64,000 bases of DNA, from positions 10,293,501 to 10,357,500 of the forward strand of contig OZ014411.1 in assembly GCA_963965975.1 (NCBI GenBank), read 5' to 3'. The notes beneath the pieces are model-generated. The model saw only the letters and a list, made by a program, of their open reading frames with translations, had not been told where the DNA came from and searched no databases. Each line of letters begins with the position of its first letter. The first letter of the stretch is position 1. Made by a program: the position numbers and the translations under genes. Below, piece after piece: positions 5,302 through 34,667 of the stretch. Source of the stretch: Xestospongia bergquistia. Taxonomy: Eukaryota > Porifera > Demospongiae > Haplosclerida > Petrosiidae.

Positions 5302-5938
5302 CTACAGTTTTGAAGACAATGAAGATATTCCAATGATATTAAAATGTAGCTCATCCCATGGCATTGGGTCACTCTTGTGGTTAGCTTCTGCATTATTTTT
5401 CTCAGATTCTGTAACAAGGCGAACTCCATTGATATCTCCTACACTTAAGTAGTAATTCTCTCCATTATGTACAGTCTTAAGTCTAACATTAATTTGAGTA
5501 CCAATAGGTTCCATAATAAACTCAGCTCCTGTACCTTGTGATCCCTACATACAAGATTAAAGTTTAAGTTCTAACATAAAATGATAATACTCACTAAAGT
5601 CAGAGAGGCTGGATGTATAACAATTAATTCCATTTGTCCCATTTGACTCTGACTGATAATTTGACTTGTAGTATTTGGTTTATCACAAATTTTAAGATTA
5701 ACTAAACAAAATATGATAATTAATATAGTTCAAATCAAATTGTACTTTGTAAGACACAATATTATTAAAAAGAGATAATTCTTTTAAACTTACAGACATT
5801 ATTTAAACTTGTGATGCCTACAAGACCAATTCCTGGGATATGTGCCAAATAATATCCAGTTCCATGACAGAATAGAACATTAGTGACATTAGTAGATGGA
5901 TTGTTAACATAGTCTGTTATACTTATAAGATTTGCCAT
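5302..5938 (-). CDS. Small three-exon gene, copy 1; putative beta-trefoil cytokine-like protein
   Basis: Coding exons read on the minus strand at 5938-5794, 5701-5595 and 5544-5302, joined by GTAAGT/TAG and GTGAGT/TAG introns in phase 1 and phase 0, giving 164 aa. The start MANLISITDY has no signal peptide or membrane segment. Residues about 21-43 (VLFCHGTGYYLAHIPG, then IGLVGIT) and about 98-122 (VRLKTVHNGENYYLSVGD, then NGVRLV) look like two YYL hairpins, and a final DELHFNIIG strand closes the chain. Length and motif spacing suit one beta-trefoil of the FGF / IL-1 class, which often lacks a signal peptide; this is inference. A TATA box lies at 6071-6063 and a polyadenylation signal at 5142-5137. 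Gene reality is strong because frame and all four splice sites persist in five copies. Confidence 0.75.
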
Positions 5939-6062
5939 GATGATTGCTAATAAATTAAAGATGATAATATAATAAGTACAATTTTTATTGAAACTCTTGT
6001 TTTCTCTTTAGTTATTTTGCAATAGCTATAATTTGATGATAACTGTTAGTTGTACTCAGACA

Positions 6063-6071
6063 CTTTATATA
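6063..6071 (-). promoter_or_regulatory. TATA box of copy 1 (conserved in all five copies)
   Basis: The minus strand reads TATATAAAG at this site, 125 bp upstream of the ATG. The same motif occurs at the same relative place in the other copies: 12,365-12,373, 19,887-19,895, 28,286-28,294 and 34,793-34,801. This implies a start of transcription near 6,035 and a 5' leader of roughly 100 nt. Confidence 0.6.
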
Positions 6072-7325
6072 TCGAACTTGACAGGAACTAGTAATGACAA
6101 ATTATGATGCAATAACTTCGTTAGGACATTGCTTCCTTACACATAAAAGGTCATTGTTTGTCCTTTAAGTATGCAACATGTAACATCAGAAGACAAAGAG
6201 AATTTCCCTCTAATATTAGGGCTTCTCTCTCTTTACAATGGAATGTTAAGCTGTGTTTCACAGTTGACATCATTTATTTAGAATTCTAATTTTTCCATAT
6301 ATGGATGTTTACATTTATGAGTTAAATAAACGTTTGTGACCTATTTGTCTTTTATGTGTCCAAGTTAATACTGTTAGATAGGTTTAGTCAGCCAGAAATC
6401 ATTAAATATGTGACTTAACTATGGCTACCTGAATTAATGAGATGATTTAGATATCACATGGTTATACTTTTACCAACAAATGATAAATCATCATATGATA
6501 AATTGTACCTATGTACCTTTGAATGATTGTGTGCATATATGTCATTGACTATGTATTATGATGAAATAAATGGTGACAAAGGTCATTTTAATATTCTTTT
6601 GCTATCTGTAATGATTAACAAAAGTGAATAGCAATACAATTAACCATTTATTAAAATAATGAAATAAAATAATAGTATTTAATATTAACCACCACCATAT
6701 ATTTTATATACTCAGACAAAATATATGGTGGTGGTCCATACAGGTTGACTATTTGTATGAATACACTAAGGGAGAGTGAGCTGGAATAATATCTATTGTT
6801 AAAGGCAGACTTCAAATTTTCATAAACAATGTCTCATCAATTTCAATATAAGATTCACTTTAAGTGAGCTTGAGTGAATTATCTATTAGTAATATATGAC
6901 AAATTAAGTAATGCTAGAGGAGGCAATTCCACTTACTAGAGTCACGTCAATTCATGTTACTAACACAATGTATAGGTGGGAGTATCCATATTTAGACTGT
7001 CATCATACAGTAACATAACTGTATTATTCTATAAAGTACTACATTGTGTATAGCTACAAATACTGAGCATTATGGGTTCTGTATCCACAAATATTTACAA
7101 TGAATCAGTAACCAAATTCATGGCTATATTAAATTCAGTTGCAGTTGACATAATAAGAAGCCATATTGTGCTATTATCAATTAAAGTTGTGATGACAATT
7201 ACTGGGAGTAATAGTACAAAGTTTATAACCCATTGGTACACTATACTCTATGTAAGATGAACTTTCATGTATACATTCCCTAACAAAATATTGAGACTTA
7301 TTTATGCGATATATACCCGCACATC

Positions 7326-7618
7326 TGGAGGATGAGATCACTGGTATTCCCTGGTTTATACCTCATTTCCAGTTGCTAATATCAGCTACAAATAATGTCA
7401 TTGATTATAACATTTATATTAACAGTCTACTCAATCATTCCCAATTTGTTACATGTGATAGGAAAATGTCCCAATAATACTAAGATATGCAACATTGAAA
7501 GCATATCTAATTTGTGAAACACAAATATAGTCTTTTATTATTATGGTACTTATAGATGTAGGGACATAATTATACACAATGTGTTATATGACATGACTTA
7601 TCTTGACTATGAGGTGTG
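7326..7618 (+). pseudogene. Ig-like exon fossil, unit 1
   Basis: Reads GIPWFIPHF, then SQFVTCDRKM, then in another frame FYYYGTYRCRDIIIHN. The frame change and a stop make it a pseudogene. The interpretation is given at the 45 kb copy. Confidence 0.35.
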
Positions 7619-9395
7619 ATATAATTATTGGTAGGTAATCTTGTGGATTGACTCATATACCTATATATCTTTTGTTCTATAAATGATGTTGTAACAACTT
7701 CACTTGAAGTGGTTGATACCTTCTTTCACCATTTTCTTGTCATGACTGTCATTATAATAAATAACAACACCTGCTAGGCAGATTATCCCATTTTTGTCTT
7801 CAATTCTTCTACATTAACTTTAAGGTAAATGTTTATGATATTCCACAATAATTCTAGATAATTATTATTTAGTGAGCATCTAGTGTTCTGAAAATATTGT
7901 GGAAGTGAGAGCTATCCAAAATATACAACTTATATAGTTCAAAATGAGGGAATGATTGTGTCATTATTAACTTTAGATGATCATATTGATTACCATTTAA
8001 GGAGAATTTTCTGTTTTGTATGTAGTATGATATGGTTGACCAAAAACTGGCTAGTCAATTGTACACTCTATTAGGTATTGACATATCTGTATACACTAGT
8101 ATATTATATTATGTTCAAAAGATGATTATATTTTTGACCTGTATTATTATTAATGGCGTAGTCTATTAATATACAGAAATGTCTATATTGTATATGTACA
8201 TATATTACATGTACCTTAATATATGACATATGTTGTTATATTACATGTACTTTGTCACTTAGTTAAAGACACCCATTTAACCACTAAACATGTAAACAGA
8301 TATGTAATAAGTATTTTATATAAGAGAGTACATTTCCTGTTGTGATAATGTACCTAATACATTGTTTATATGGTATAGTGGATAAAATTGTCTTTATGAT
8401 ATATCATACCATTAAAAAACTAGCTATACCTTCTTAATGAAAAGTTAAGCACTGTACATTGTATAATTTATATATTTAGGTAGGGAAAAATGTTTCAATA
8501 ATATTATCAACTTGTTGTCAACCTCAAATGTAAAATTGGATTACATTCGCTTACAAGAACTAATAAACAAATTATTTATTTTTAAACTGTTGAATGTTGA
8601 GATGATCATATCAACATTCTCTCTATAAAATAAATAGTTCAGTTTGGAATATAACTGACTACATTATATGTACATGTGTATATTAGGAGATTATTGTTAT
8701 AATAATAAGTTTATTTCAACTTTATTATGTACTACAACTAGTACTCACACTAACTCTTTTTAATATAACTCATTAATGTAACTTATCACTTGATACTTTT
8801 GTGCTGTAATTATGAAAGTGACTTCAAATGTACTTTTAATTGTGTGTACTAATTTTAGCTATTTGTATAGAATAGAAATATAATTACTAAAATTATACTC
8901 AGTCCTCTTCTATATCATGAATTAAATTAGTTTATATCATAACTTAAACAATTGCCAAAATGGTTGTACTTACTGATGAAGTCCTGTCAATATATTCTGA
9001 CTTCTATATTGGTATACATATTATTATTGCAAGTTAGTATTTAGTATGAATTATCATTTACAAGTAGCTAGTTACCACATACAGTTCAATAAAAGTAACT
9101 GTCTGACTAAGAGATCCTGCCTTTATTGGTAGACTAGCTATGTTAATGTGACCTGTAGGATATGTTTCTTTGTAATAGATAAATAATTATAATAATAACT
9201 TCCTTTCACTTAAGAGTATATACACCATAACTTGTCATTACTACTTTACCTAGAGCTTTTTTCAAACTCAGTATATATAGGATATCAAACTGTGGTTTAA
9301 TTCTTTATAACAACAAGTGATATTTGATGAAACTACTGTTAATAAAATTACAAAAGTAACATGTACATTACATCTGATAAGATGATATAGATATG

Positions 9396-9665
9396 TCATA
9401 TAATAATAAAATAAAGTGATAATCTAGTTTTGAAAACAGTGAATATAGGCATTGGGTCAATATTCTGGTTAGCTTCTGCAGTATTTTTATCAATATAGTT
9501 CAAATTAAAATGTACTTTGTAAGACATAAAAGAGATAATTCTTTCAAACTTACAGGCATTATTTAAACTTGTGATACCTACAAGACCAATTCTTGGGATA
9601 TGTGCCAAATGATATCCAGTCCCATGATAGAGCAGAAAATTATTGACATTAATTTTTGATATCAC
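9396..9665 (-). pseudogene. Minus-strand fragment of the three-exon gene, unit 2
   Basis: An open frame of 89 codons includes the exon 1 core (YHGTGYHLAHIPRIGLVG) with its donor GTAAGTTTG, but reads into intron 1 and then into a short piece of exon 3 (TAEANQNIDPMP). Exon 2 and most of exon 3 are deleted, and the N-terminus is replaced. The open frame is therefore a deletion product and not the ancestral reading. Confidence 0.75.
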
Positions 9666-9963
9666 ACATACCAGTAAAGGAAGTGACTAGCTTTTCTTTT
9701 CAAAATATGTCATATAGAATAAAACGTTATTATCTTTATGAAGGCTTGTCATTCCAATGATCAATTGTAAACATAATTTTTCTCATGAGAGCGATGGTAT
9801 GTATCAATAAAATGTAATCTGATCACGATTCAATAATTTCTTCAAAAGTATTTATGACCATGTGAGTTCATATGAATGATATGTATTATTAGGTTTGGCA
9901 TCTATAGGATTGACATTGAAATCAGTTTTGTTAAATAGTATAATGCATGATTCTCAACACAAA

Positions 9964-10065
9964 CGAAAAAATACTGCAGAAGCTAACCACAATACTGATC
10001 CAATGCTATGGAAAGAGCTACATTTTAATATCATTGGACTATCTTCACTGTCTTTAAAGCTCTAG
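9964..10065 (+). pseudogene. Exon 3 tail fragment of the three-exon gene, unit 2
   Basis: About 100 bp match the C-terminal part of exon 3 (AEANHNTDPMLWKELHFNII and on), ending with a TAG at 10063-10065. No other exon is present next to it. Confidence 0.75.
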
Positions 10066-10499
10066 AGTCATCATTTTGATTAATAATATAATATATCTAT
10101 ATTTGACTTTCTCTTGTCACAACCAAAAGTACACTTTACTAAATTATAACTTTATTTTATTATTATATAACTTATCTATATCATCTTATGAGATGTAATG
10201 TGCATGTTACTTTTGTAATTTTATTATTAAAAGTTTCATTGAATAACACTTGTTGTAATAAAGGATTAAAATAATAGTAGTTAATTTACCAATATGTAAA
10301 ATGTCCCTAGTATTACTTGTTCAGAGTACATGCATAATGTTAGTGGCATTAAATGTTTAACCAAATAGAAGTTAGCTGTAAAAGTGACATGCCTTAATAA
10401 ACTGTTAAGTGTGACATTTACCACAAGTTACTGACCACTCTTAAAAGTCACATCCATGATGAAAACAGTCAAGATAATAATATAATTTCTTTGCTTCAA

Positions 10500-11040
10500 A
10501 ATTAAGATTGTTTTAATAATTTGATAAGAATGTGTTAAAATTGCAGTAAAATCATGTTAAGATTATTTTTAAAATGCATTAAGATTATGTTAAAATTGAG
10601 CTAAAATAATACTTTAATTGTGTTAACATTGCATTAAATTGTGTTTCAAATTATGTTAAATTGTGTTAAAATTGCATTAAAATTGTGTTATAATTGCATT
10701 AAGATTGCATTAAAATTTTGCTAAAATTGCATTAAAAATGTGTTCAAATTGAATTAAAATTGTGTTAAAATTGTATTAAAATTGTGTTAAAATTGAATGT
10801 TAAAATTGCATTAAAAGTGTGTTAAAATAGAATTAATATTGTGTTAAGATTGCATTAAAATTGTGTTAAAACTATGTTAAAAATAGTGCTAAAATTGTGT
10901 TGAGATTGTGTTAAAACCGTGTTAACATTGTGTTAAAATTGCATTAAAATTGTGTTAAAATTGAATTAAAATTGTGTTAAAATTGTGTTAAAGTTGTGTT
11001 AAGATTGCATTAAAACTGTGTTAAAATTGTGTTAAAATTC
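10500..11040. repeat. 11-bp minisatellite in the centre of unit 2
   Basis: About 540 bp of variants of GTGTTAAAATT alternating with GCATTAAAATT, period 11 bp, with scattered point changes and a few indels. Confidence 0.9.
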
Positions 11041-11600
11041 TTATAAGTTTATTTATTACATAACATGATTTACATGACAGAACTCTGTAGCAAAGAAATT
11101 GAATGTGCGTTTTTTGTTGACTGATTTACTTTTTGATGTGATACTGATTTACTCTTTGATGTGAGTCTAGTAACTTGATAATAAATGTCACAATAAATGG
11201 TTTATTAAGGTATGTCACTAATAATGATTTACTGTCTGTCATCTTCTATTTGGTTAGACAGTTAATGTCATTAATATTATGCTATGAACAAGCAATACTA
11301 GGGACATTGGTTACTATTGTTTTTGATTTTATAGTACAGCAAGTGTTATTTAATGAAATTTTAGTAATAAAATTACAAAATTAACTACTATGATTTTAAT
11401 CCTTTTTTAGAACAAATTATATTCAATGAGATTTTCATTAATAAAATTACAAAAGTAATATGTATATTAGATCTGATAAGATAATATGAGATATTCCATG
11501 TAATAATAAATTAAAGTGATAATCTAGTAAAGTGGACTTTTGGTTGTAATAATAGAATGTCAAATATAGATATATTATAATGTTAATTAAAATGATGACT

Positions 11601-12239
11601 CTAAAGTTTTGAGGACAGTGATGATATTCCAATGATATTAAAATGTAGCTCATCCCATGGCATTGGGTCACTCTTGTGGTTAGCTTCTGCATTATTTTTC
11701 TCAGATTCTGTAACAAGGCGAACTCCATTGACATCTCCTACACTTAAGTAGTAATTCTCTCCATTATGTACAGTCTTAAGTCTAACATTAATTTGAGTAC
11801 CAATAGGTTCCATAATAAACTCAGCTCCTGTACCTTGTGATCCCTACATACAAGATTAAAGTTTAAATTCTAACATAAAATGTTAATATACTCACTAAAG
11901 TCAGAGAGGCTGGATGTATAACAATTAATTCCATTTGTCCCATTTGACTCTGACTGATAATTTGACTTGTAGTATTTGGTTTATCCCAAATTTTAAGATT
12001 AACTAAACAAAATATGATAATTAATATAGTTCAAATTAATTTGTACTTTGTAAGACATAATATTATTAAAAAGAGATATTTCTTTTAAACTTACAGACAT
12101 TATTTAAACTTGTGATACCTACAAGACCAATTCCTGGGATATGTGCCAAATAATATCCAGTTCCATGACAGAATAGAACATTAGTGATATTAGTAGATGG
12201 ATTGTTAACATAGTCTGTTATACTCATAAGATTTGCCTT
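11601..12239 (-). CDS. Small three-exon gene, copy 2; ancestral start codon lost
   Basis: Exons are 12239-12095 (ancestral extent), 12002-11896 and 11843-11601, with the same introns as copy 1. The ATG used by the other copies has become AAG at 12239, but an in-frame Met four codons on, at 12227 (MSITDYVNN), would give 160 aa and keep the whole predicted fold. Codon 48 is Val, as in copy 1, and the exon 3 protein carries the DVNGVRLV version of the hairpin. The TATA box is at 12373-12365. The copy may still be functional with a shifted start, or may be at the beginning of decay. Confidence 0.7.
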
Positions 12240-12510
12240 GATGATTGCTAATAAAGTAAAGACGATAATATAATAAGTACAATTTTTATTGAAACTCTTG
12301 TTTTCTCTTTTAGTTATTTTGCAATATCTATAATTTGATGATAACTGTTAGTTGTACTCAGACACTTTATATATCGAACTTGACAGGAACTAGTAATGAC
12401 AAATTATGATGCAATAACCTCGTTAGGACATTGCTTCCTTACACATAAAAGGTCATTGTTTGTCCTGTAAGTATGCAACATGTAACATTAGAAGACAAAG
12501 GGAATTTCCC

Positions 12511-12512
<2 letters not shown>

Positions 12513-12572
<60 letters not shown>
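12513..12572. repeat. TA microsatellite, unit 2
   Basis: About 60 bp of (TA)n with one G interruption, inserted between CCCTCTAA and TTAGGGC. Confidence 0.95.
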
Positions 12573-13661
12573 TAGGGCTTCCTTCTTTTTACGATGGAAT
12601 GTTAAGTTGTGTTTCACAGCTGACATCATTTATTTAGAAGACTAATTTTTCCACATATGGACGTTTGCCTTTACGAGATAAATGAAAGTTTGTGACCTAT
12701 TTGTCTTTTTTGTGTCCAAGTTAATATTGCTAGATATATTTAGTCAGCCAGAAATCATTATAATGTGACTTAACTATGGCTACCTGAATTAATGAGATGA
12801 TCTAGATATCACATGGTCATACTTTTACCAACAAATGATAAATCATCATATGATAAATTGTACCTATGTACCTTTGAATGATTGTGTGCATATATGTCAT
12901 TGACTATGTATTATGATGAAATAAATGGTGACAAAGGTCATTTTAATATTATTTTGTTATCTCTGTAATGAATGATTAACAAAAGTGAATAGCAATACAA
13001 TTAACCATTTATTAAAATAATTAAATAAAATAATAGTAATTAATATTAATTTGATATGTAATATGTACCGCTTGACTGTTTGTATGAATACACTGAGGGA
13101 GTGTGAGCTGGAATAATATCTATTGTTAAAGGCAGACATTACTTCAAATTTTCATAAACAATGTCTTAGCAATTTCAATATAAGATTTACTTTAAGTGAG
13201 CTTGAGTAACTTATCTATTAGTGATATATGACAAGTTAAGTAATGTTAGAAAGAACCAATTCCACTTACTAGACTCAAGTAAACTCATATTACTAACACA
13301 ATGTATAGGTGGGAGTATCTATATCCAGACTGTAGCATACAGTAACATTGGATTAGAAGTGTATTATTAAAATTAACTTTAGAACTATTACATTGTGCAT
13401 AGCTACAAAATACTGAGCATTATGGGTTCTGTATGCACAAATATTTACAATGAATCAGTAACCAAATTCATAGCTATATTGCAGTTGACATAGTAAGAAG
13501 CCATATAGTGCTATTATCAATTAAAGTTGTGATGACATAACTGGTAGTAATAGTACAAAGTTTATAACCCATATGTCCTTTATAACCCCTTGGTACACTA
13601 TACTCTATGTAAGATGAACTTTCATGTATACATTCCCTAACAAGACTTATTTACATACCAG

Positions 13662-13961
13662 CACATCTGGAGGTTGAGATCTCTGGTATTCCCTGATTTA
13701 CACCACATTTCCTGTTGTTAATATCAACTACAAATAATGTCATTGATCATAACATTTTCATTAACATTCCAGTCACACGTTCCCAATTTGTTACATGTAA
13801 TAGGAAAATGTACCAAAAATACTAAGATATTCAACATTAAAAGCATATCTAATTTGTTAAATACAAATATAGCCTTTTATTATTATGGTACTCATAGATG
13901 TAGGGACATAATTATATACAATGTGTCATATGACATGACTTATCTTGACTATGAGGTGTGA
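13662..13961 (+). pseudogene. Ig-like exon fossil, unit 2
   Basis: Same exon, with a plausible CAG acceptor in front of CACATCTGGAGG. The Trp codon of GIPW has become TGA. The second half is open (NTNIAFYYYGTHRC). Confidence 0.35.
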
Positions 13962-16212
13962 TATAATTATTGGTAGGTAATCTTGTGGATTGACTCATAT
14001 GCCGATATATCTTTTGTTCTATAATTGATAATGTTGGTACCTTCTTTCTTCATTTTCTAGTCATGACTGTCAGTATGAATAATAACAACATCTGCTAGGC
14101 AGATTATCCCATTTTTTGGCTTCAATTCCTCTGCATTAAGTTTAAGGTGGGTGTTTATGATATTCCACAATAATTCTAGATAATTATTATTTAGTGTGCA
14201 TCTTATGTGTTCTGAAAATATTGTGGAAATGAAAATTATCCAAAATATACAACTTATACAGTTCAAATTGAGGGAATGATTTTCCCATTGTTTCTTTTAG
14301 ATGATCATATTGATTACCATTTAAGGAGAAATTTCTGTTTTGTATGTAGTATGGTATGGTTGACAATAAACTGGTTAGTCAGTTGTACACTCTGTTAGGT
14401 ATTAACATTGCTGTATACACTAGTATATTATATTATGTTCAAAAGATTACATATTTGACCTGTATTATTATTATTAGTATAGTCTTATAACATACAGAAA
14501 TGTTTATATTTTATATGTACATATATTACATGTACCTTAACATATGACATATGTTGTTATATTATATGTACTTTGTCACTTAGTTAAAGACACCCATTAA
14601 CCACTAACATGTAAACAGATATGTAATAAGTATTTTATATAAGAGAGTACATTTCCTGTTGTGATAATGTACCTAATACATTGTTTATTTGGTATAGTGG
14701 ATAAAATTGTCTTTATAATATATCATACCATTAAAAACTAGCTATACTATCTTAATGAAAAGTTAAGCACTGTACATTGTATAATTTATATATTAAGGTA
14801 GGGAAAAATGTTTCAATAATATTATCAACTTGTTGTCAACCTCAAATGTAAAAATGGATTACATTCACTTACAAGAAAAAAATAAAGTATTTTTATTAGT
14901 AGTAATGTACATAAATTATTTACTTTGTTGGACTGAAAATATCAGTGTACTATTTGTAATAAGGATATATATTTTATATAAGTAAGGAAAAAACTAATAA
15001 ACAAATTATTTATTTTTAAACTGTTGAATGTTGAGATAATCATATCAACATTCTCTCTATAAAATAAATAGATCAGATAGTTCTCAGTTTGGAATATAAC
15101 TGACTACATTATATGTACATGTGTATATTAGGAGATTAATGTTATAATAATAAGTTTATGTCAACTTTATTATGTACTACAACTAGTACTCACACTAACT
15201 CTTTTAATATAACTCATTAACATAACTTATCACTTGATGCTTTTGTGTTGTAATTATGAAAGAGACTTCAAATGTACTTTTAATTGTGTGTACTAATTTT
15301 AGCTATTTGTATAAAATAGAAATATAATTACTAAAATTATACTCAGTCCTTATCTATATCATAAATTAAATTAGTTATATCATGACTTAAACAATTGACA
15401 AAATGGTTGTACTTACTGATGAAGTCCTGTCAATATATCCTGACTTCTATATTGATATACATATTATTATTGCAAGTTAGTATTTAGTATGCAGAGGAGA
15501 GTCTATATTTTAATTAATATTATAATTTTATATTTAACTTTCTATTATCACAACAAAAAGTACACAATCTTTTCTTTTAACATTTGAAATAAACCATTTA
15601 ATTTGACATTTATTAGTCAGATACTGGTTGGGTTAAGATGAGCTTAAACTCGCATCAAACGCATCAAAGAGGAAACAGTCGAAAAATGCACATCCAATTT
15701 CTTCCTAAAGAATTTTCTCACTAAGTCTTGTTATGTAATGAAGACATAATCACACACTAAAATACTCTATACATAAAACATGTACTATCATGTAATAGAA
15801 TAAACAGTGCAGACTAATTTACTATTAGTTTTATTAAATTATTTATCAAGTACAAATGTGGCAGTATAATGTAACTATATGAACTTTGTACTTTTAAATT
15901 CCTTATTGAAACAAACATAGACAAAGATTAAGGTACTGTAAAGGATGTTAATACCCTGTATGACAACATAGACATAGTTTTAAATGCATTATCAGTATAA
16001 AAATAATTTGTCCAATATAACTACAAGTTGAAAGAATGTCATTGTTAAATTGCTATTATCACTGATGGAAGGCATTGACTATGTGTATACATATATAACT
16101 AGCATGTATTCTTTACTTGTTCTTTTATCATGTCAGCTTGTTACTAGAGATATAAGAGATTAATATTTCAAATGATAAGACAATAATGGGAAATGTTGTA
16201 CTATGACATAAC

Positions 16213-16684: not shown

Positions 16685-17083
16685 GACATAACCCTACACC
16701 AAATATTATACCAATTGAATTGCATTAAATACAAAAATATATATTTTGTAGAAATTATGAAGTAATGTCTGATTGTATTTTTTTACAATAGATATTGTTC
16801 CTGATCACTCTCCCTCCATATAGTCATCACAGATTGACATGTACTTTAGTCCTTGTTATAATCAATGAAGTACTAATAACTTATAGTGTTAGTTTCTTAT
16901 CCATTTTTTACAGTCTTCTAAGGAAGTGACCTATCAACATTGCAACAAGAGAAGTTAGTCCCTTTACTTTTACATATGGCAAGTCTTACTTTCAGGAAAG
17001 ATAGTGACTAGTAGAAAGTATTTCTTTGTAAAAGATAAATTATAATAATAACTTCCTTTTTTTAAGAGGATATACATCATCAT

Positions 17084-17673
17084 GTTCTGTTTTGTAATGG
17101 AACTGGATATCATTTGGCACATATCCCAGGAGTTGGTCTTGTAGGTATTGCAAGTTTAAATAATGCCTGTAAGTTTGAAAGAATTTCTGTATTTAATAAT
17201 GTTGTGTTTTACAAAGTACAGTTTAATTTGAATTATATTAATTAGCATATTTTTGTTTTGTTAATCTTAAAATTTGGGATAAACCAAATACTACAAGTCA
17301 AATTATCAGTCAGAGTCAAATGGGACAAATGGAATTAATTGTTATACATCCATCCTCTCTGACTTTAGTCAGTATATTATCATTTTATGTAACAACTTCA
17401 ACTATTTGTATGTATTGATCACATTGTACAGGAGCTGAGTTTACTATGGAACCTATTGGTACTCAAATTAATGTCAGACTTAAGACTGTACATAATGGAG
17501 AGAATTACTACTTAAGTGTAGGAGATGTCAATGGAGTTTGGCATGTTACAGAAGCTGAGAGAAATGATGCAGAAACTAACCACAATGCTGATCCAATGCT
17601 ATGGAAAGAGCTACATTTTAATATCATTGGACTATCTTCACTGTCTTTTAAAGCTGTACATTCATCATTTTAA
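17084..17673 (+). pseudogene. Longest plus-strand copy of the three-exon gene, unit 3
   Basis: Part of exon 1 (17084-17168, starting VLFCNGTGYH), all of exon 2 (17261-17367, 107 bp) and exon 3 (17416-17673) are recognisable. The N-terminal 20 codons including the start are missing. The exon 2 acceptor is TG instead of AG, and the exon 3 acceptor is lost with its first codon turned to TGA. Exon 3 has the unbroken frame (NGVWHVTEAERN) plus a short extension past the old stop. It is more diverged than the minus-strand genes. Confidence 0.85.
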
Positions 17674-18099: not shown

Positions 18100-18592
18100 A
18101 AGATTGCTTTAATAATTTGATAAGAATGTGTTAAAATTGCAGTAAAATCATGTTGAAATTATTTTAAAAATGCATTAAGATTATGTTAAAATTGAGCTAA
18201 AATAATACTTTAATTGTGTTAACATTGCATTAAATTGTGCTTCAAATTATGCTAAATTGTGTTAAAATTGCATTAAAAGTTTGTTAAAATTGTGTTAAAA
18301 TTGTGTTATAATTGCATTAAGATTGCATTAAAAGTGTGTTAAAATAGCATTAACATTGTGTTAAGATTGCATTAAAATTGTGTTAAAATTGTGTTAAAAC
18401 TGTGGTAAAATAGTGCTAAAATTGTGTTGAGATTGTGTTAAAACCGTGTTAACATTGTGTTAAAATTGAATTAAAATTGTGTTAAAATTGAATTAAAATT
18501 GTGTTAAAATTATGTTAAGATTGTGTTAAGATTGTGTTAAAGTTGTGTTAAGATTGCATTAAAACTGTGTTAAAATTGTGTTAAAATTGTTA
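18100..18592. repeat. 11-bp minisatellite in the centre of unit 3
   Basis: Same 11-bp repeat as in unit 2, about 490 bp, with a different order of the two variants, so the arrays have rearranged internally after the units were duplicated. Confidence 0.9.
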
Positions 18593-19122: not shown

Positions 19123-19762
19123 CTACAGTTTTGAGGACAGTGATGATATTCCAATGATATTAAAATGTAGCTCATCCCATGGCATCGGGTCACTTTTGTG
19201 ATTAGCTTCTGCATTATTTTTCTCAGTTTCTGTAACAAGGCGAACTCCATTGATATCTCCTACACTTAAGTAGTAATTCTCTCCATTATGTACAGTCTTA
19301 AGTCTAACATTAATTTGAGTACCAATAGGTTCCATAGTAAACTCAGCTCCTGTACCTTGTGATCCCTACATACAAGATTAAAGTTGAAGTTCTAACATAA
19401 AATGATAATATACTCACTAAAGTCAGAGAGGCTGGATGTATAACAATTAGTTCCATTTGTCCCATTTGACTCTGACTGATAATTTGACTTGTAGTATTTG
19501 GTTTATCCCAAATTTTAAGATTAACTGAATAAAATATGTTAAATTAATATAGTTCAAATTAAATTGTACTTTGTAAGACACAATATTATTAAAAAGAGAT
19601 AATTCTTTTAAACTTACAGATATTATTTAAACTTGTGATGCCTACAAGACCAATTCCTGGGATATGTGCCAAATAATATCCAGTTCCATGACAGAATAGA
19701 ACATTAGTGATATTAGTAGATGGATTGTTAACATAGTCTGTTATACTCATAAGATTTGCCAT
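19123..19762 (-). CDS. Small three-exon gene, copy 3
   Basis: Exons 19762-19618, 19524-19418 and 19365-19123 are all intact and give 164 aa. It differs from copy 1 at a few residues: NNI rather than NNV at the end of exon 1, EFTMEPIG rather than EFIMEPIG in exon 3, and VTETEKNN rather than VTESEKNN. The exon 2 acceptor is TTCAG instead of TTTAG, still consensus. The TATA box is at 19895-19887. About 75 bp further upstream lies a perfect AGGTCA direct repeat with one-base spacing (19,970-19,982), not present in copies 1, 2 or 5. Confidence 0.75.
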
Positions 19763-19969
19763 GACGATTGCTAATAAAACAAAGACAATAATATAATAAG
19801 TATAATTTTTATTGAAACTCTTGTTTTCTCTTTAGTTATTTTGCAATATCTATAATTTGATGATAACTGTTAGTTGTACTCAGACACTTTATATATCGAA
19901 CTTGACAGGAACTAAAAAATAGTAATAACAAATTATGATGCATTAGGACATTACTTCCTTACACATAAA

Positions 19970-24422: not shown

Positions 24423-24892
24423 CATAGGGGTAGGAACGATTGAAAAGTTGGGAGGCTTTAAATCATGAAGAAGTAATTTGATCAGAAAAATTAATTTCAT
24501 GCAGTTATAAATGTGATTATTAGGTAATAATCAGAAGTACATGTATATGCTGATAATAACTAATCGAAAAAATGCTAAGTATTAAAGTCTATGATTATTA
24601 AAAGTAAAAAATTCTTCTGCTATTTTTTTAAAGTTTATCTTATCTGTGCAATTTTTGTTAGTTCAAATGATCTTGTGACATATTCATATTGTATCGTCAT
24701 CATCCTTATTATGACATTGGTCATTAGTACTCAACCTATGAGTATTCATATAAAAATATCAATAAAAAATGCTATAATAAGTTGTGCATCAGCATCATGA
24801 CTCTATTTGTATCTATCCTTTATTTGCAAACCATCAAAGTTTGGGGGCCTTTAGTCCCTCCTGCAACCTCCCCCCCCATTCCTATTACTATG
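24423..24892. mobile_element. hAT-like MITE, copy 3, decaying right end
   Basis: Same element in unit 4, 470 bp. The right end has drifted (CCTATTACTATG), the C run is reduced to about eight, and the right target copy is GATATAAC against GACATAAC at 24415-24422. Confidence 0.75.
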
Positions 24893-25692: not shown

Positions 25693-25874
25693 GGATCACA
25701 AGGTACAGGAGCTGAGTTTATTATGGAACCTATTGGTACTCAAATTATTGTTAGACTTAAGACTGTACATAATGGAGAGAATTATTACTTAAGTGCAGGA
25801 GATGTCAATGGAGTTTGCCTTGTACAGAAGCTGAGAAAAATAATGCAGAAGCCAATCAAAATACCAACACAATA
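25693..25874 (+). pseudogene. Truncated exon 3 copy of the three-exon gene, unit 4
   Basis: Exon 3 begins at 25693 behind a mutated acceptor (TAA for TAG). It shows the same one-base loss after GVCL as the unit 1 and unit 5 copies, and is cut off at about 25,874 by a deletion that joins it to centre sequence. Confidence 0.8.
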
Positions 25875-27521
25875 TTCCTAAAAGTTGTACTATGAAATAA
25901 TCATACTAACAATGTAAATTAATTAGTTTTAGTCTTATCAGATGTAATGTACATGCTACTTTGTAATTTTATTTCATTGAATAACACTTGTTTTAATAAA
26001 GGATTAAAACTAAAACTAATTAATTTACATTGTTAGTATGATTATTTCATAGTACAACTTTTAGTGACATTAATTGTCTAACCAAATAGACGATAACAGT
26101 AAAAGTGACATGCCTTAATAAAATGTTAAGTTTGACATTTATCAAAAGTTCCTGAATAATCTTAAAACTTGCATGCATGAGGAAATCAGTCAAGACAAGT
26201 GTGCATACAATTTCTTTGTTGCAAAATTTTGTCATTTAAAACATGTTATGTGGTGGATAATACATAATCACACACTAAAATAGTCTGTACTCGAAACATG
26301 TACTATCATGTAATAGAATAAAAAGTCCAGGCTAGTTTGCTATTAGTTTAATTGAATTATTTATCAAGTACAAATGTGGCAGTATAAGGTACTATATGAA
26401 GTTTGCACTTTTAAATTCCTTATCGAAACGTACATAATCAAACATCAAAGTACTGCAAAGGACGTTAATACCATGTATGACAACATAGACATACTTTTAA
26501 ATGCATTATTAATGTGAAATTAATTTATGAAACTTGACTTCAAGTTGGATGAATGTTGTTGTTAAACTGGTCAAATTTTGCTATTATCACTGATGTTTAA
26601 GAAATAAGACAAGCAGTAATGACAATGACTATTTCTATGAATATACAAGTTGAATGTATTCTTTACTCTTTCTTTGACCATCTTTGCTTGATATCTATTG
26701 GAGGCATAAAGACTTTATGTTTAAGGTATGTCACTAATAATGATTTACTGTCATCTTCTATTTGGTTAGAGAGTTAATATCACTAATGTTATGCTATGAA
26801 CAAGTAATACTAGGGATATTTTATATATTGGTAAATTAACTACTATTGTTTTTAATTCTTTATTACAACAAGTGTAATTTAATGAAATTTTATTAGTAAA
26901 ATTACAAAAATATCATGTACATTATATTTTATAAGATAGTAAAGATATGACATAGCTTTTATAAAATTATTGATTTAAAGAGAAGTGATCCAAAAGAAAC
27001 TAATAAAAGTTATAATGTAAACAGTACAATGATAATAAACTGAGTATTTTGGGATTAAGATTATATTTAGAAAAATAAAGATGACTAAAATATGGAAGCA
27101 CAAAGTTAATATTTACATCATGCTGCCACATTTGTATTTAATAAATAATTAAATTAAACTAATGCCAAACTGCCTGCACTGTTTACTATGTTTTATGGAT
27201 AGTGTATTTTAGTATGTGATTGTGTGTTCATTACATAACATGATTTACATGAAAAAACTCTGTAGCAAAGAATTTGAATGTGTCGACTGATTTACTCTTT
27301 GTGAGTTTTAAGCCTGTCCAGTACTTGAAAATAAATGTCACAATAAATGGTTAATTAGAACAAATTTTATTCAATGGGATCTTCATTAATAAAATTACAA
27401 AGTAACATGTACATTACATTTGATAAGACGATATAGATATTCCATATAATAATAAAATAAAGTGATAATCTAATAAAGTGGACTTTTGGTTGTAATAATA
27501 GAATGTCAAATATAGATGACT

Positions 27522-28160
27522 CTACAGTTTTGAAGACAATGTAGATATTCCAATGATATTAAAATGTAGCTCATCCCATGGCATCGGGTCACTCTTGTGG
27601 TTAGCTTCTGCATTATTTTTCTCAGATTCTGTAACAAGGCGAACTCCATTGATATCTCCTACACTTAAGTAGTAATTCTCTCCATTATGTACAGTCTTAA
27701 GTCTAACATTAATTTGAGTACCAATAGGTTCCATAGTAAACTCAGCTCCTGTACCTTGTGATCCCTAAATACAAGATTAAAGTTTAAGTTCTAACATAAA
27801 ATGTTAATATACTCACTAAAGTCAGAGAGGATGGATGTATAACAATTAATTCCATTTGTCCCATTTGACTCTGACTGATAATTTGACTTGTAGTATTTGG
27901 TTTATCCCAAATTTTAAGATTAACTAAACAAAATATGTTAATTAATATAGTTCAAATTAAATTGTACTTTGTAAGACACAATATTATTAAAAAAAGATAA
28001 TTCTTTTAAACTTACAGGCATTATTTAAACTTGTGATGCCTACAAGACCAATTCCTGGGATATGTGCCAAATAATATCCAGTTCCATGACAGAATAGAAC
28101 ATTAGTGATATTAGTAGATGGATTGTTAACATAGTCTGTTATACTCATAAGATTTGCCAT
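27522..28160 (-). CDS. Small three-exon gene, copy 4
   Basis: Exons 28160-28016, 27923-27817 and 27764-27522 are intact, giving 164 aa. Exon 1 ends in NNA, which probably is the ancestral residue because the plus-strand copy at 17,168 has it too. Near the C-terminus it has GISTLSSKL against GISSLSSKL elsewhere. The TATA box at 28294-28286 is kept, and a one-mismatch version of the AGGTCA direct repeat lies at 28,369-28,381. A run of seven A at about 27,990 in intron 1 does not affect splice sites. Confidence 0.75.
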
Positions 28161-28368
28161 GATGATTGCTAATAAAGTAAAGACAATAATATAATAAGAG
28201 TAACTTTTATTAAAACTCTCGTTTTCTCTTTTAATTATTGTGCAATAGCTATAATTTGATGATATCTGTTAGTTGTACTCAGACACTTTATATATCCACT
28301 TTGACAGGAACTAAAAAATAGTAATGACAAATTATGATGCATTAGGACATTGCTTCCTTACACATAAA

Positions 28369-28381
28369 AGGTCAAAAGTCA
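28369..28381. promoter_or_regulatory. Imperfect DR1 element upstream of copy 4
   Basis: The plus strand reads AGGTCAAAAGTCA, one mismatch from the copy 3 element and at the same place relative to the TATA box at 28,286-28,294. Confidence 0.25.
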
Positions 28382-28442
28382 TTATTGTTTGTCCTGTAAG
28401 TATGCAACATGTAACATCAGAAGACAAAGGGACTTTCCCTCT

Positions 28443-28444
28443 AA

Positions 28445-28476
<32 letters not shown>
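28443..28476. repeat. TA microsatellite, unit 4
   Basis: About 34 bp, (TA)n with a GTGTA interruption, between the same flanks as in the other units. Confidence 0.9.
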
Positions 28477-28477
<1 letters not shown>

Positions 28478-29568
28478 TAGGGCTTCTTTCACTTTACAAT
28501 GGAATGTTAAGCTGTGTTTCACAGCTGACATCATTTATTTAGAAGATTTTTCCCCATATGGACGTTTGTATTTATGAGTTAAATGAAAGTTTGTGACCTA
28601 TTTGTCTTTTATGTGTCCAAGTTTATATTGCTAGATAGATTTAGTCAGCCAGAAATCATTATAATGTGACTTAACTATGGCTAGCTGAATTAATGAGATG
28701 ATCTAGATATCACATGGTCATACTTTTACCAACAAATGATAAATTATCATATGATAAATTGTACCTATGTACCTTTGAATGATTGTGTGCATATATGTCA
28801 TTGACTATGTATTATGATGAAATAAATGGTGACAAAGGTCATTTTAATATTATTTTGTTATCTGTAATGAATGATTAACAAAAGTAAATAGCAATACAAT
28901 TAACCATTTATTAAAATAATGAAATAAAATAATAGTAATTAATATTAATTTGGTATATAATATATACTCAGACAAAATATACGGTGGTGGTCCATACAGG
29001 TTGACTATTTGTATGAATACACTGAGGGAGAGTGAGCTGGAATAATATCTATTGTTAAAGGCAGGCATTACTTCAAATTTTCATAAACAATGTCTCATCA
29101 ATTTCAATATAAGATTTACCATAAAGTGAGCTTGAGTGAATTATCTATTAGTGATATATGACAAGTTAAGTAATGTTAGAAAGAACCAATTCCACTTACT
29201 AGAATCAAGTAAACTCATATTACTAACACAATGTATAGGTGGGAGTATCTATATCCAGACTTTAACATACAGTAACATTGGATTAGAACTGTATTATTAA
29301 AATTAATTCTATAAAGTACTACATCGTGCATAGCTACAAAATACTGAGCATTATGGTTTCGGTATCCACAAATATTTACAATGAATCAGTAACCAAATTC
29401 ATAGCTATATTGCAGTTGACATAGTAAGAAGCCATGTGCATAGTGCTATTATTAATTAAAGTTGTGATGACATAACTGGTAGTACTAGTACAAACCCTTT
29501 TTTACACTATACTCTATGTAATATGAACTTTCATGTATACATTCCCTAACAAGACTTATTTACATACC

Positions 29569-29870
29569 AGTACATCTGGAGGTTGAGATCACTGGTATTC
29601 CCTGATTTACACCACATTTCCTGTTCTTAATATCAACTACAAATAATGTCATTGATCATAACATTTATATTAACATTCCAGTCACTCGTTCCCAATTTGT
29701 TACATGTAATAGGAAAATGTACCAAAAATACTAAGATATGCAACATTAAAAGCATATCTAATTTGTTAAATACAAATATAGCCTTTTATTATTATGGTAC
29801 TTATAGTTGTAGGGACATAATTATACACAATGTGTTATATGACATGACTTATCTTGACTATGAGGTGTGA
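29569..29870 (+). pseudogene. Ig-like exon fossil, unit 4
   Basis: Same exon. The second half, NTNIAFYYYGTYSCRD, stays open for 74 codons from an unrelated start in the first half, which is a frame switch against the 45 kb copy. Confidence 0.35.
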
Positions 29871-30771
29871 TATAATTATTGGTAGGTAATCTTGTGGATT
29901 GACTCATATACCGATATATCTTTTGTTCTATAATTGATAATGTTGGTACCTTCTTTCTTCATTTTCTAGTCATGACTGTTAGTATAATTAATAACAACAT
30001 CTGCTAGGCAGATTATCCCATTTTTTGGCTTCAATTCCTCTGCATTAAGTTTAAGGTGGGTGTTTATGATATTCCACAATAATTCTAGATAATTATTATT
30101 TAGTGGGCATCTTATGTATTCTGAAAATATTGTGGAAATGAAAATTATCCAAAATATACAACTTATATAGTTCAAATTGAGTGAATGATTTTCCCATTGT
30201 TTCTTTTAGATGATGATATTGATTACCATTTAAGGAGAAGTTTCTGTTTTGTATGTAATATGGTATGGTTGACAATAAACTGGTTAGTCAGTTGTACACT
30301 CTGTTAGGTATTAACATTGCTGTATACACTAGTATATTATATTATGTTCATATTATGTTATATTGATATACATATTATTATTGCAAGTTAGTATTTAGTA
30401 TGCAGAGGAGAGTCTATATTTTAATTAATTTTATATTTCACTTTCTATTATCACAACAAAAAGTACACAATCTTTTCTTTTAACATTTGAAATAAACCAT
30501 TTAATTTGACATTTATTAGTCAGATACTGGTTGGGTTAAGATGAGCTTAAACTCGCATCAAACGCATCAAAGAGGAAACAGTCAAAAAATGCACATCCAA
30601 TTTCTTCCTAAAGAATTTTCTCACTAAGTCTTGTTATGTAATGAAGACATAATCACACACTAAAATACTCTATACATAAAACATGTACTATCATGTAATA
30701 GAATAAACAGTGCAGACTAATTTACTATTAGTTTTATTAAGTAATTGTGAGTATGTAAAATGATGACATGG

Positions 30772-30948
30772 TTCAAATGCTCTTGTGACATATTCATATT
30801 GTATCGTCATCATCCTTATCATTACATTGGTCATTAGTACTCAACCTATGAGTATTCTTATAAAAATATCAATAAAAAATGCTATAATAAGTTGTGCATC
30901 AGCATCATGACTCTATTTGTATCTATCCTTTATTTGCAAACCTTCAAA
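30772..30948. mobile_element. Internal fragment of the hAT-like MITE, unit 5
   Basis: About 177 bp match the interior of the element (from TTCAAATG to CCTTCAAA). Both ends are missing. A single GACATAAC target site lies just to the right at 30,984-30,991. Confidence 0.7.
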
Positions 30949-31209
30949 TGGAGATGTTGTACTAATGGGAGATGTTGTACTATGACATAACCCTACACCA
31001 AATATTATATCAATTGAATTGCATTAAATACAAAAAGATATATTTTGTAGAAATTATGAAGTAATGTCTGATTGTATTCTTTTACAATAGATAATGTTCC
31101 TGATAACTCTCCCCCCATATAGTCATCACAGATTGGCATGTACTTTAGTCCTTGTTATAATCACTGAAGTACTAATAATTCATATTTATATTATCATTAC
31201 TATTTCAAA

Positions 31210-31376
31210 AGTGCCAGTGTTAGTATCCCATCCATTTTTTACAACGCCAAAAAATTTGTTTTATGAAGTTTATCCTAGTCCATAGAATGTCACACATAAA
31301 TTCCAATTTTTCCCTCTGGTAACCATGCCAACCATTTACATGGACCACCACCATGTACTTTTTCAGGATCAGATAG
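31210..31376 (-). pseudogene. Gly/Trp-rich exon fossil, unit 5
   Basis: The minus strand reads LSDPEKVHGGGPCKWLAWLP, then EGKIGIYV, a stop and a frame change, then FFGVVKNGWDTNTGTFE. It matches the copies at 41 and 43 kb at the protein level. Units 1 and 4 keep only the last third (near 2,600 and 25,150), and unit 3 has lost most of it. I cannot name the family. Confidence 0.55.
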
Positions 31377-32042
31377 TGTTAATATTTTATAATTATTGTT
31401 TAGTATTATTAATTTATGGTCATTACAGTTAAGAAGTATGCATTTATTCTAATTACAAAAAATGATTAATTATTTATGTCACCAGTCATTTCATTATTCT
31501 ACATATATTATTATATATACATGTACACATTGTCAGATACATGGGTACATTTCCTTTTATCATGTTTCATTTATCATTTATTGATATTCCCAAATTATGA
31601 CTATGCTGTTCAGGGATCATCTTATAAATTTAGGTTCCTATAGTTTCCATAGTGTATTTGTCATTTAAAGATTTAACTTTCATCTATCTAGTTATGTATA
31701 CTTGAACACAAAAAGGACAAGTTGATCACAAACTTTTACTTGACTTATCAGTGTAAAAATCCATTTATGAAATTCAATTAAAATAGTCTTCTATGAACTA
31801 TCAACATTCCATTGTAACGAGAGAAGGAAGTCCTTTACCTTTACACAAAACATGTCTTACTTTCAGGAAAGATAGTGACCAGTAGAAAGTATTCCTTTGT
31901 AAAAGATAAATTATAATAATAACTTCCTTTTTTTAAGAGGATATACATCATAACTTGTCATTACTAATTTGCCTCGAGCTTCTGACTTTAGTGAGTATAT
32001 TATCATTTTATGTTAGAACTTCAACTTTAATTTTGTATGTAG

Positions 32043-32284
32043 GGATCACAAGGTATAGGAGCTGAGTTTATTATGGAACCTATTGGTACTCAAATTATTG
32101 TTAGACTTAAGACTGTACATAATGGAGAGAATTATTACTTAAGTGCAGGAGATGTCAATGGAGTTTGCCTTGTACAGAAGCTGAGAAAAATAATGCAGAA
32201 GCCAATCAAAATACCAACACAATACCATAGAAAGAGCTACATTTTAATATCATTGGACTATCTTCACTGTCTTTAAAACTGTAG
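32043..32284 (+). pseudogene. Exon 3 copy of the three-exon gene, unit 5
   Basis: Full-length exon 3 behind an intact TAG acceptor, with the shared one-base loss after GVCL, so that the reading frame ends in IPTQYHRKSYILIS-type sequence. Exons 1 and 2 are missing apart from a short exon 2 tail near 31,978. Confidence 0.8.
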
Positions 32285-34030
32285 AATCAACATTTTAATT
32301 AATATTATAACATATATACTGTAGAGTCATCATCTATATTTGACTTTCTATTATTACAACCAAAAGTCCACTTTATTAGATTATCACTTTATTTTATTAT
32401 TATATGGAATATGTCTATCATCTTATCAGATGTAATGTACATGCTACTTTGTAATTTATTAATAAAAATTTCATTGAATAACACTTGTTGTAATAAAGGA
32501 TTAAAACTAAAACTAATTAATTTACATTGTTAGTATGATTATTTCATAGTACAACTTTTAGTGACATTAATTGTCTAACCAAATAGAAGATAACAGTAAA
32601 AGTGACATGCCTTAATAAAATGTTAAGTTTGACATTTATCAAAAGTTCCTGAATAATCTTAAAACTTGCATGCATGAGGAAATCAGTCAAGACAAGTGTA
32701 CATACAATTTCTTTGTTGCAAAATTTTGTCATTTAAAACATGTTATGTGGTGGATAATACATAATCACACACTAAAATAGTCTGTACTCGAAACATGTAC
32801 TATCATGTAATAGAATAAAAAGTCCAGGCTAGTTTGCTATTAGTTTAATTGAATTATTTTTAAGTGCAAATGTGGCAGTATAATGTAACTATATGAATTT
32901 TGCACTTTTAAATTCCTTATTGAAACGTACATAATCAAATATCAAAGTACTGCAAAGGACGTTAATACTTTGTATGACAACATAGACATACTTTTAAATG
33001 CATTATTAATGTGAAATTAATTTATGAAACTTGACTTCAAGTTGGATGAATGTTGTTGTTAAACTGGTCAAATTTTGCTATTATCACTGATGTTTAAGAA
33101 ATAAGACAAGCAGTAATGACAATGACTATTTCTATGAATATACAAGTTGAATGTATTCTTTACTCTTTCTTTGACCATCTTTGCTTGATATCTATTGGAG
33201 GCATAAAGACTTTATGTTTAAGGTATGTCACTAATAATGATTTACTGTCATCTTCTATTTGGTTAGAGAGTTAATAAACAAGTAATACTAGGGACATTTC
33301 ATATATTGCATGGTGAATTAACTACTATTGTTTTTAATTCTTTATTACAACAAGTGTAATTCAATGAAATTTTATTAGTAAAATTAAAAAAATATCATGT
33401 ACATTACATTTGATAAGATAGTAAAGATATGACATAGCTTTTATAAAATTATTGGTTTGAAGAGAAGTGATCCAAAAGAAACTAATAAAAGTTATAATGT
33501 AAACAGTACAATGATAATAAACTGAGTATTTTGGGATTAAGATTATATTTAGAATAATAAAGATGACTTAAATATGGAAGTACAAAGTTAATATTTACAT
33601 CATGCTGCCACATTTGTATTTAATAAATAATTAAATTAAACTAATGCCAAACTGCCTGCACTGTTTACTATGTTTTATGGATAGTGTATTTTAGTATGTG
33701 ATTGTGTGTTCATTACATAACATGATTTACATGAAAAAACTCTGTAGCAAAGAATTTGAATGTGTCGATTGATTTACTCTTTGTGAGTTTTAAGCCTGTC
33801 CAGTACTTGAAAATAAATGTCACAATAAATGGTTAATTAGAACAAATTTTATTCAATGGGATCTTCATTAATAAAATTACAAAGTAACATGTACATTATA
33901 TCTGATAAGATGATATAGATACTCCATATAATAATAAAATAAAGTGATAATCTAATAAAGTGGACTTTTGGTTGTAATAATAGAAAATCAAATATAGATA
34001 TATATTAATATATTAATTAAAATAATGACT

Positions 34031-34667
34031 CTACAGTTTTGAGGACAGTGATGATATTCCAATGATATTAAAATGTAGCTCATCCCATGGCATCGGGTCA
34101 CTCTTGTGGTTAGCTTCTGCATTATTTTTCTCAGATTCTGTAACAAGGTGAACTCCATTGACATCTCCTACACTTAAGTAGTAATTCTCTCCATTATGTA
34201 CAGTCTTAAGTCTAACATTAATTTGAGTACCAATAGGTTCCATAATAAACTCAGCTCCTGTACCTTGTGATCCCTACATACAAGATTAAAGTTTAAGTTC
34301 TAACATAAAATGATAATACTCACTAAAGTCAGAGAAGCTGGATGTATAACAATTAGTTCCATTTGTCCCATTTGACTCTGACTGATAATTTGACTTGTAG
34401 TATTTGGTTTATCCCAAATTTTAAGATTAACTAAACAAAATATGATAATTAATATAGTTCAAATTAAATTGTACTTTGTAAGACACAATATTATTAAAAA
34501 GAGATAATTCTTTTAAACTTACAGACATTATTTAAACTTGTGATGCCTACAAGACCAATTCCTGGGATATGTGCCAAATAATATCCAGTTCCATGACAGA
34601 ATAGAACATTAGTGACATTAGTAGATGGATTGTTAACATAGTCTGTTATACTCATAAGATTTGCCAT
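34031..34667 (-). CDS. Small three-exon gene, copy 5
   Basis: Exons 34667-34523, 34430-34324 and 34273-34031 are intact, giving 164 aa. It carries DVNGVHLV where most copies have NGVRLV, so the second predicted hairpin has one Arg-to-His change. The TATA box is at 34801-34793. The gene is followed upstream (higher coordinates) by the longest TA microsatellite of the array, about 280 bp from the start codon. Confidence 0.75.

What the first reader, a model, noticed from the sequence alone, without database searches (positions are those of the whole stretch)
5302..34667. Tandem family of small proteins resembling FGF / IL-1 type beta-trefoil cytokines
Five minus-strand genes encode near-identical 164-aa proteins without signal peptide. 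Seen: hairpin motifs FCHGTGYYLAHIPG and NGENYYLSVGDVNGV, and a last strand LHFNIIG. FGFs have a comparable first hairpin (YC..G.FL.I.PDG.V.G) and IL-1 proteins a comparable KNLYLSC hairpin followed by a FNKIE strand; both often leave the cell without a signal peptide. A lineage-specific cytokine-like cluster in a sponge would be new to me. The family assignment is inference from motif reading.
Basis: partly seen in the sequence, partly recalled or inferred. Interest (0 to 1): 0.8.

Follow-up and report, generated by a model that had tools for sequence, protein, structure and literature searches.

The report
Amplified likely beta-trefoil genes, probable sponge
In what is probably a sponge genome, a small gene without a secretion signal, whose protein looks like it folds as a beta-trefoil, has been copied about fifteen times in one region and kept intact by selection, but nothing shows that it is a growth factor or cytokine.

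Summary
The window holds five minus-strand, three-exon genes at the stated coordinates. Four encode 164 aa; the copy at 12239 has AAG for ATG and would give 160 aa. They belong to a 0.2-Mb array; 15 of 17 reconstructed copies are intact. The frame is real: pN/pS is 0.32, and exons have no indels, unlike introns and flanks.

The FGF/IL-1 reading is only partly supported. No significant Pfam, NCBIfam or PDB match was found. The host's FGF-like and fascin genes lie elsewhere and show no significant similarity. Recalled FGF, IL-1 and QxW signatures are absent; pI is 5.6.

A beta-trefoil fold is likely. A strand-pattern score based on a published survey ranks the family with known trefoils and above all 191 E. 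coli segments tested. Strands modelled in exons 1 and 3 fit, at low confidence. The spliced protein was not folded: the tool takes contiguous frames only.

Best reading: a leaderless trefoil protein amplified for dose, more likely a binding or defence protein than a cytokine.

The parts
5302..5938 (-). Gene 1: exon 1 5794-5938, exon 2 5595-5701, exon 3 5302-5544 (with stop); 164 aa; TATATAAAG at 6063-6071
11601..12239 (-). Gene 2: exon 1 12095-12239, exon 2 11896-12002, exon 3 11601-11843; AAG in place of the ATG, next Met gives 160 aa; TATATAAAG at 12365-12373
19123..19762 (-). Gene 3: exon 1 19618-19762, exon 2 19418-19524, exon 3 19123-19365; 164 aa; TATATAAAG at 19887-19895
27522..28160 (-). 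Gene 4: exon 1 28016-28160, exon 2 27817-27923, exon 3 27522-27764; 164 aa; TATATAAAG at 28286-28294
34031..34667 (-). Gene 5: exon 1 34523-34667, exon 2 34324-34430, exon 3 34031-34273; 164 aa; TATATAAAG at 34793-34801
17081..17652 (+). Inverted copy with all three exons recognisable but intron 2 splice sites altered (donor GTCAGT, acceptor AG lost); probable pseudogene
   Evidence: three further inverted copies outside the window, L025, L027, L028
3078..3316 (+). Inverted, frameshifted exon 3 copy with a stop
25693..25868 (+). Inverted, frameshifted partial exon 3
32043..32281 (+). Inverted, frameshifted exon 3 copy with a stop
9447..9650 (-). Degraded copy: exon 1 match at 9558-9650 and a scrap of exon 3 at 9447-9491
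9967..10062 (+). Inverted exon 3 tail fragment
39916..40023 (-). Exon 1-like fragment, 72% identical, with no exon 2 or 3 match beside it

Best explanation
A recently and repeatedly duplicated array of a three-exon gene encodes a leaderless, slightly acidic protein of about 164 aa with one or two cysteines. Shown: the array, the gene structure, purifying selection on the protein, lack of a match to the families searched, and block duplication on top of the tandem unit. Strongly suggested: a beta-trefoil fold, with four strands in each of three units of about 42 residues (Phe49, Phe93 and Phe152 in strands 4, 8 and 12) and an insert of roughly 14-17 residues, partly modelled as a helix, between strands 11 and 12. 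Inferred: the protein is made in the cytosol in quantity from many near-identical promoters (dose amplification) and works by binding a ligand, most likely as a lectin-like or defence/recognition protein released on damage or acting inside cells, not as an FGF or IL-1 orthologue. I put the fold at about 0.8 and this functional reading at about 0.35.
For: Frame and selection: pN/pS 0.32 over 15 copies. Over 13 class A copies, substituted columns are 3.7-6.2% in exons, 11.6-13.5% in introns and 17-44% in flanks, with no gapped columns in exons. Array: 15 of 17 reconstructed copies intact. The class B exon 3 places (10195076, 10285217, 10370038) and three inverted-copy places (10198939, 10289074, 10373792) recur at about 90.1 and 84.8 kb, which points to a triplicated block. 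Promoter: TATATAAAG within one base of the same distance in 13 of 13 class A copies. Fold: pattern score z 3.94 (3.32-4.66 over 4 parameter sets), with 0 of 191 E. coli segments as high in any set; an earlier version gave 0 of 153. AlphaFold strands at 20-24, 29-34, 38-43 and, renumbered, 91-98, 101-110, 113-119, 125-129. Chou-Fasman adds 49-53, 61-65, 73-78, 152-157; the seventh strand is placed by eye only. Internal repeat 1 versus 3: Smith-Waterman p 0.011. No leader by hydropathy, pI 5.6.
Against: No sequence search finds a trefoil family. Foldseek of the exon 3 model (pLDDT 62.7, pTM 0.49) finds nothing at E 0.001. Trefoil-repeat HMMs built here gave p below 0.05 in only 4 of 12 family tests (fascin model 1 of 4, FGF model 3 of 4, combined model 0 of 4). 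Hydropathy autocorrelation at lag 41-43 is not significant (p 0.13); the best lag is 53, which is not the trefoil period. In the best pattern path the first repeat is out of the register I expect. Repeat 2 does not align with 1 or 3. The pattern score was written after I had seen the sequence; one non-trefoil host segment reached z 2.47, and with the widest gap setting up to 6 E. coli segments score as high as one of the known trefoils. No expression or functional data were seen.
Confidence: 0.5

Rival explanations
1. A lineage-specific cytokine: an FGF-like or IL-1-like beta-trefoil released without a signal peptide that acts on a cell-surface receptor.
For: Probable trefoil fold, length of 164 aa, no leader by hydropathy. 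An HMM of FGF-type repeats gives p 0.034 for the whole protein and 0.0085 for repeat 3. In the sponge Spongilla, FGF receptors and an FGF ligand that sequence searches missed are reported (PMC10176882, passages).
Against: No Pfam FGF or IL-1 match. Recalled FGF and IL-1 signatures absent, pI 5.6 rather than basic. The host has separate FGF-like genes with no significant similarity (p 0.22 and 0.70; hhalign E 0.35). The p values do not survive correction for the 12 family tests made.
Confidence: 0.12
2. A cytoskeletal or membrane-associated intracellular trefoil of the fascin/hisactophilin type.
For: No leader and few cysteines; fascin domains score alike on the pattern.
Against: No significant similarity to the host's own fascin (p 0.50) and none of the 16 PF06268 matches listed lies in the cluster. 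Cytoskeletal proteins are not usually amplified in near-identical arrays (recalled).
Confidence: 0.15
3. A small beta protein of another fold, for example a beta-sandwich, with a chance trefoil-like pattern.
For: All sequence and Foldseek searches are empty of significant hits; autocorrelation peaks at lag 53, not 42; one non-trefoil host segment reached z 2.47.
Against: 0 of 191 E. coli segments reach its score; in the 27 segments that I chose as beta-rich the maximum was 2.81 over the four settings.
Confidence: 0.2
4. A non-coding repeat or an assembly artefact.
For: The region is repetitive, with few long open frames, and 27.7% GC.
Against: Purifying selection, no exon indels, conserved splice sites. 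Over the 1.8-kb stretch compared, class A copies differ by about 1-10% and class A from class B by up to 29%, so they are not one locus counted many times.
Confidence: 0.03

Closest known systems
FGF family (Pfam PF00167)
   Same: Probable trefoil fold, similar length; hhalign pairs VRLKTVHNGENYYLSVGDVNGVRL with the host FGF-like hairpin IKLQSVEHKFYLAVTDDGTVTV (E 0.35, not significant)
   Different: No profile match, no recalled FGF signature, acidic, leaderless, three-exon tandem array
IL-1 family (Pfam PF00340)
   Same: No leader, similar length (recalled for IL-1), probable trefoil
   Different: No profile or recalled signature match; the genome search for IL-1 rang in no control either and is uninformative
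Fascin / hisactophilin type trefoils (Pfam PF06268)
   Same: Strand pattern; no leader, few cysteines
   Different: No significant sequence similarity; one domain instead of fascin's four
Mytilectins (trefoil lectins reported from a few demosponges; PMC10744619, passages)
   Same: Animal trefoil proteins without a signal peptide in sponges
   Different: Poriferan mytilectin genes are single-exon and most mytilectins carry a pore-forming domain; here there are three exons and no added domain
Ricin-B type lectins (QxW)
   Same: Three-fold repeat, if the fold is right
   Different: No QxW motif in 17 of 17 reconstructed sequences, two of them broken

Membership tests
beta-trefoil fold | Twelve strands in three units of 40-50 residues with the published hydrophobic/aromatic pattern | tested here: met
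   z 3.94 with 0 of 191 negatives as high; host FGF-like and fascin positives 2.72-3.85. Rules from passages of PMC9062101; the S3 rule, weights and gap ranges are mine
beta-trefoil fold | Confident three-dimensional model | tested here: inconclusive
FGF | Match to Pfam PF00167 | tested here: not met
   hmmscan of gene 1's protein at E up to 10 and of single exons; the genome search at E up to 1 lists two matches, on C5 and C12
FGF | HBGF/FGF PROSITE signature (recalled) | tested here: not met
   0 of 17 sequences, two of them broken
FGF | Binding to FGF receptor and heparan sulphate | not testable with these tools
   pI 5.6 argues against a basic heparin site
IL-1 | Match to Pfam PF00340 or IL-1 signature (recalled) | tested here: not met
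IL-1 | Release without signal peptide | tested here: inconclusive
   No leader by hydropathy; release itself not testable
Ricin-B lectin | QxW in the repeats | tested here: not met
   0 of 17, two of them broken
Fascin | Match to Pfam PF06268 | tested here: not met
   similarity to host fascin p 0.50
Mytilectin | Single-exon gene in sponges, usually with a pore-forming domain | tested here: not met
   Three exons, 164 aa, no added domain (mytilectin features from passages); no direct sequence comparison with a mytilectin was made

The most novel reading that the evidence does not exclude
A leaderless beta-trefoil cytokine family that arose within one sponge lineage, independent of FGF and IL-1, and was amplified into an array of about 15 genes used as a damage or alarm signal.
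Probability: 0.1. Interest if true: 0.75.

Novelty: new member of a known kind. Interest (0 to 1): 0.4.

Why it matters
The array is a gene family with no recognised relatives in the collections searched, probably on the trefoil scaffold, that has grown to about fifteen near-identical intact copies in one genome. If it proved to be a released ligand, it would be an independent trefoil cytokine in an early-branching animal; if a lectin or defence protein, it would add to the few sponge trefoils known. It also shows how a published strand pattern can test a fold where sequence search and fragment modelling fail.

Tried and rejected
Looked for relatives: one scan each of viral contigs and prokaryote genome contigs with the exon 3 alignment confirmed none (prokaryote genomes, 36 pattern matches, viral contigs, 14 pattern matches; none a relative). 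NCBIfam gave none; PDB by sequence, by a profile of 5 of the 15 intact proteins, and by a repeat-only profile gave nothing significant and no trefoil. Rfam found nothing in the window at gathering scores. Foldseek of the exon 3 model was uninformative. Hydropathy autocorrelation did not favour a 42-residue period. Trefoil-repeat HMMs gave weak, uncorrected signals only.

Considered a signal peptide in the hydrophobic in-frame stretch before the ATG: rejected because in the copy printed (L012) no ATG lies between the TATA box and the start codon, and AT-rich DNA reads hydrophobic; an upstream exon is not excluded without transcripts. Considered haplotype duplication: unlikely, as copies sit in tandem on one contig and class A copies differ by about 1-10%, though the closest pairs differ by only about 1%. 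Considered other genes in the repeat unit: of 220 window frames of 50 aa or more counted, six were scanned; only an ankyrin repeat at 58554 passed a Pfam cut-off, and two others had sub-threshold matches (E 0.038 and 0.021).
Full report
What is there. The window is C1:10293501-10357500 of a 146-Mb assembly in 21 contigs. It is AT-rich, 27.7% GC. On the minus strand, five copies of a three-exon gene lie at 5302-5938, 11601-12239, 19123-19762, 27522-28160 and 34031-34667. Their introns are 92-93 and 50-52 nt and start with GTAAGT and GTGAGT. Four copies encode 164 aa. In the copy at 12239 the ATG is AAG, leaving a 160-aa frame from the next Met.

The array. Searching the genome with exon 3 at E up to 1 gave 35 matches, all on C1 between 10.16 and 10.39 Mb. 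Searching with exon 1 at E up to 5 gave 28 matches, of which 27 lie in that region and one is a degraded copy at C1:18057467. Counts from these searches are lower bounds. I reconstructed 17 minus-strand copies. 15 are intact (12 of 164 aa, one of 160 aa, two of 154 aa); L024 has an in-frame stop and L030 is frameshifted. Two intact copies (L015, L016) and the broken L024 form a class B with another N-terminus. The class B exon 3 places recur at 90,141 and 84,821 bases, and three inverted copies at 90,135 and 84,718 bases (coordinates). This points to a block of about 85-90 kb triplicated on top of a tandem unit of about 4-8 kb. Over 1.8 kb around the gene, class A copies are 90-99% identical, in two subgroups, and class B copies 71-75% identical to class A. 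Exon 3 of the 16 full minus-strand copies is still 94% or more identical to that of gene 1.

Evidence that it is a gene. Over 15 copies the mean proportions of nonsynonymous and synonymous differences are 0.016 and 0.050, ratio 0.32. Over 13 class A copies the substituted columns are 5.6, 3.7 and 6.2% in the three exons, 11.6 and 13.5% in the introns, 19-26% upstream and 17-44% downstream; exon columns have no gaps. A TATATAAAG box sits within one base of the same distance in 13 of 13 class A copies; it is missing in 3 of 3 class B copies in the 500 bases looked at, and L030 has only TATAAA. I saw no expression data.

Family searches. Gene 1's spliced protein has no Pfam match except a chance-level E 0.13, no NCBIfam match, and no significant PDB match. 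Profiles of 5 of the 15 intact proteins and of repeats 1 and 3 found nothing significant in the PDB. Exon 3 alone has a sub-threshold Pfam match, E 0.018, to a bacterial sorting domain, which I take as chance. No relatives were confirmed in prokaryote genomes or viral contigs; other animal genomes could not be searched. The host has FGF-like matches on C5 and C12 and a four-domain fascin on C12. Smith-Waterman comparison of the family with these gives p 0.22 (L053), 0.70 (L052) and 0.50 (fascin); the control pair L053-fascin gives p 0.14, so this test has little power. hhalign with L053 gives E 0.35 while pairing the expected hairpins.

Fold. Exon 3 gave pLDDT 62.7 with strands 7-14, 17-26, 29-35, 41-45 and a helix 46-55. 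Exon 1 gave pLDDT 60.2 with strands 20-24, 29-34, 38-43. Foldseek with the exon 3 model found nothing at E 0.001. Chou-Fasman adds strands at 49-53, 61-65, 73-78 and 152-157; strand 7 is placed by eye only. A survey of trefoil structures states which strand positions are hydrophobic or aromatic (PMC9062101, passages). I wrote a score from those rules, with a rule of my own for strand 3 and my own weights and gap ranges, after having looked at the family sequence. Against 500 shuffles the family scores z 3.76, p 0.004. In the larger test it scores 3.94; the host FGF-like protein scores 3.35 and the fascin domains 3.85, 3.75, 2.72 and 3.14. None of 191 overlapping segments from 65 E. coli proteins reaches the family's z in any of four parameter sets; their maxima are 3.04, 3.06, 2.87 and 2.87. 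Some of these negatives do reach the weaker known trefoils, up to 6 of 191 in the widest setting. A smaller test on 153 open-frame segments, taken from all six frames, gave 0 as high, maximum 2.08. Six non-trefoil segments from the host gave z from -0.38 to 2.47. Internal repeats 1 and 3 align with p 0.011; repeats 1-2 and 2-3 do not.

Results against the fold. Repeat HMMs built from host fascin and FGF-type repeats gave p below 0.05 in 4 of 12 family tests and none with the combined model. Autocorrelation of hydropathy did not favour a lag of 41-43 (p 0.13); lag 53 was best. The best pattern path places the first three strands of repeat 1 at Tyr10, Leu22 and Leu31 rather than where the exon 1 model has them.

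What it may do. The protein has no leader by hydropathy, pI 5.6, and one or two cysteines. FGF and IL-1 signatures and the QxW motif, all recalled, are absent in all 17 reconstructed sequences, two of which are broken. In Spongilla an FGF ligand was found by structure only (PMC10176882, passages), and a few demosponges have mytilectins, trefoil lectins without a signal peptide and with single-exon genes (PMC10744619, passages). The present family differs from both in the features tested. Near-identical copies with the same promoter point to dose. I commit to a leaderless trefoil binding protein, more likely recognition or defence than signalling; this last step is inference.

Host. It is not proven.

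Print. In the searches made (15 of 80 papers listed, 10 of 18, 6 of 6, 4 of 4), no listed title or abstract start describes such an array. Only listings were seen, apart from the passages cited, and the library is open-access papers only.

Noticed in passing
window 10502-11039, 18127-18590, 40023-40207: Three arrays of an 11-base minisatellite (TTAAAATTGTG type; about 49, 42 and 17 units), each close to copies or fragments of the family.
   Followed up: no
window 58554-58805 (+): Frame with an ankyrin repeat (Pfam Ank E 3e-7), probably an exon of another gene.
   Followed up: no
L053 (C12:4985561) 1324-1914: FGF-like protein in one open frame, over the Pfam cut-off, with a leader-like N-terminus by eye; its best PDB matches are designed trefoils at E 0.0055 and above.
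   Followed up: partly
L052 (C5:8622893) 1444-1698: Frame of a second FGF-like gene over the Pfam cut-off.
   Followed up: partly
G000:C9:1502856-1522489 and C9:3183978-3186502: Clusters of cathepsin/silicatein-like exons; one at 3186395 has Ser in the active-site position.
   Followed up: partly
C1:10195076, 10285217, 10370038 (L015, L016, L024): An 85-90-kb block carrying the family seems triplicated.
   Followed up: partly
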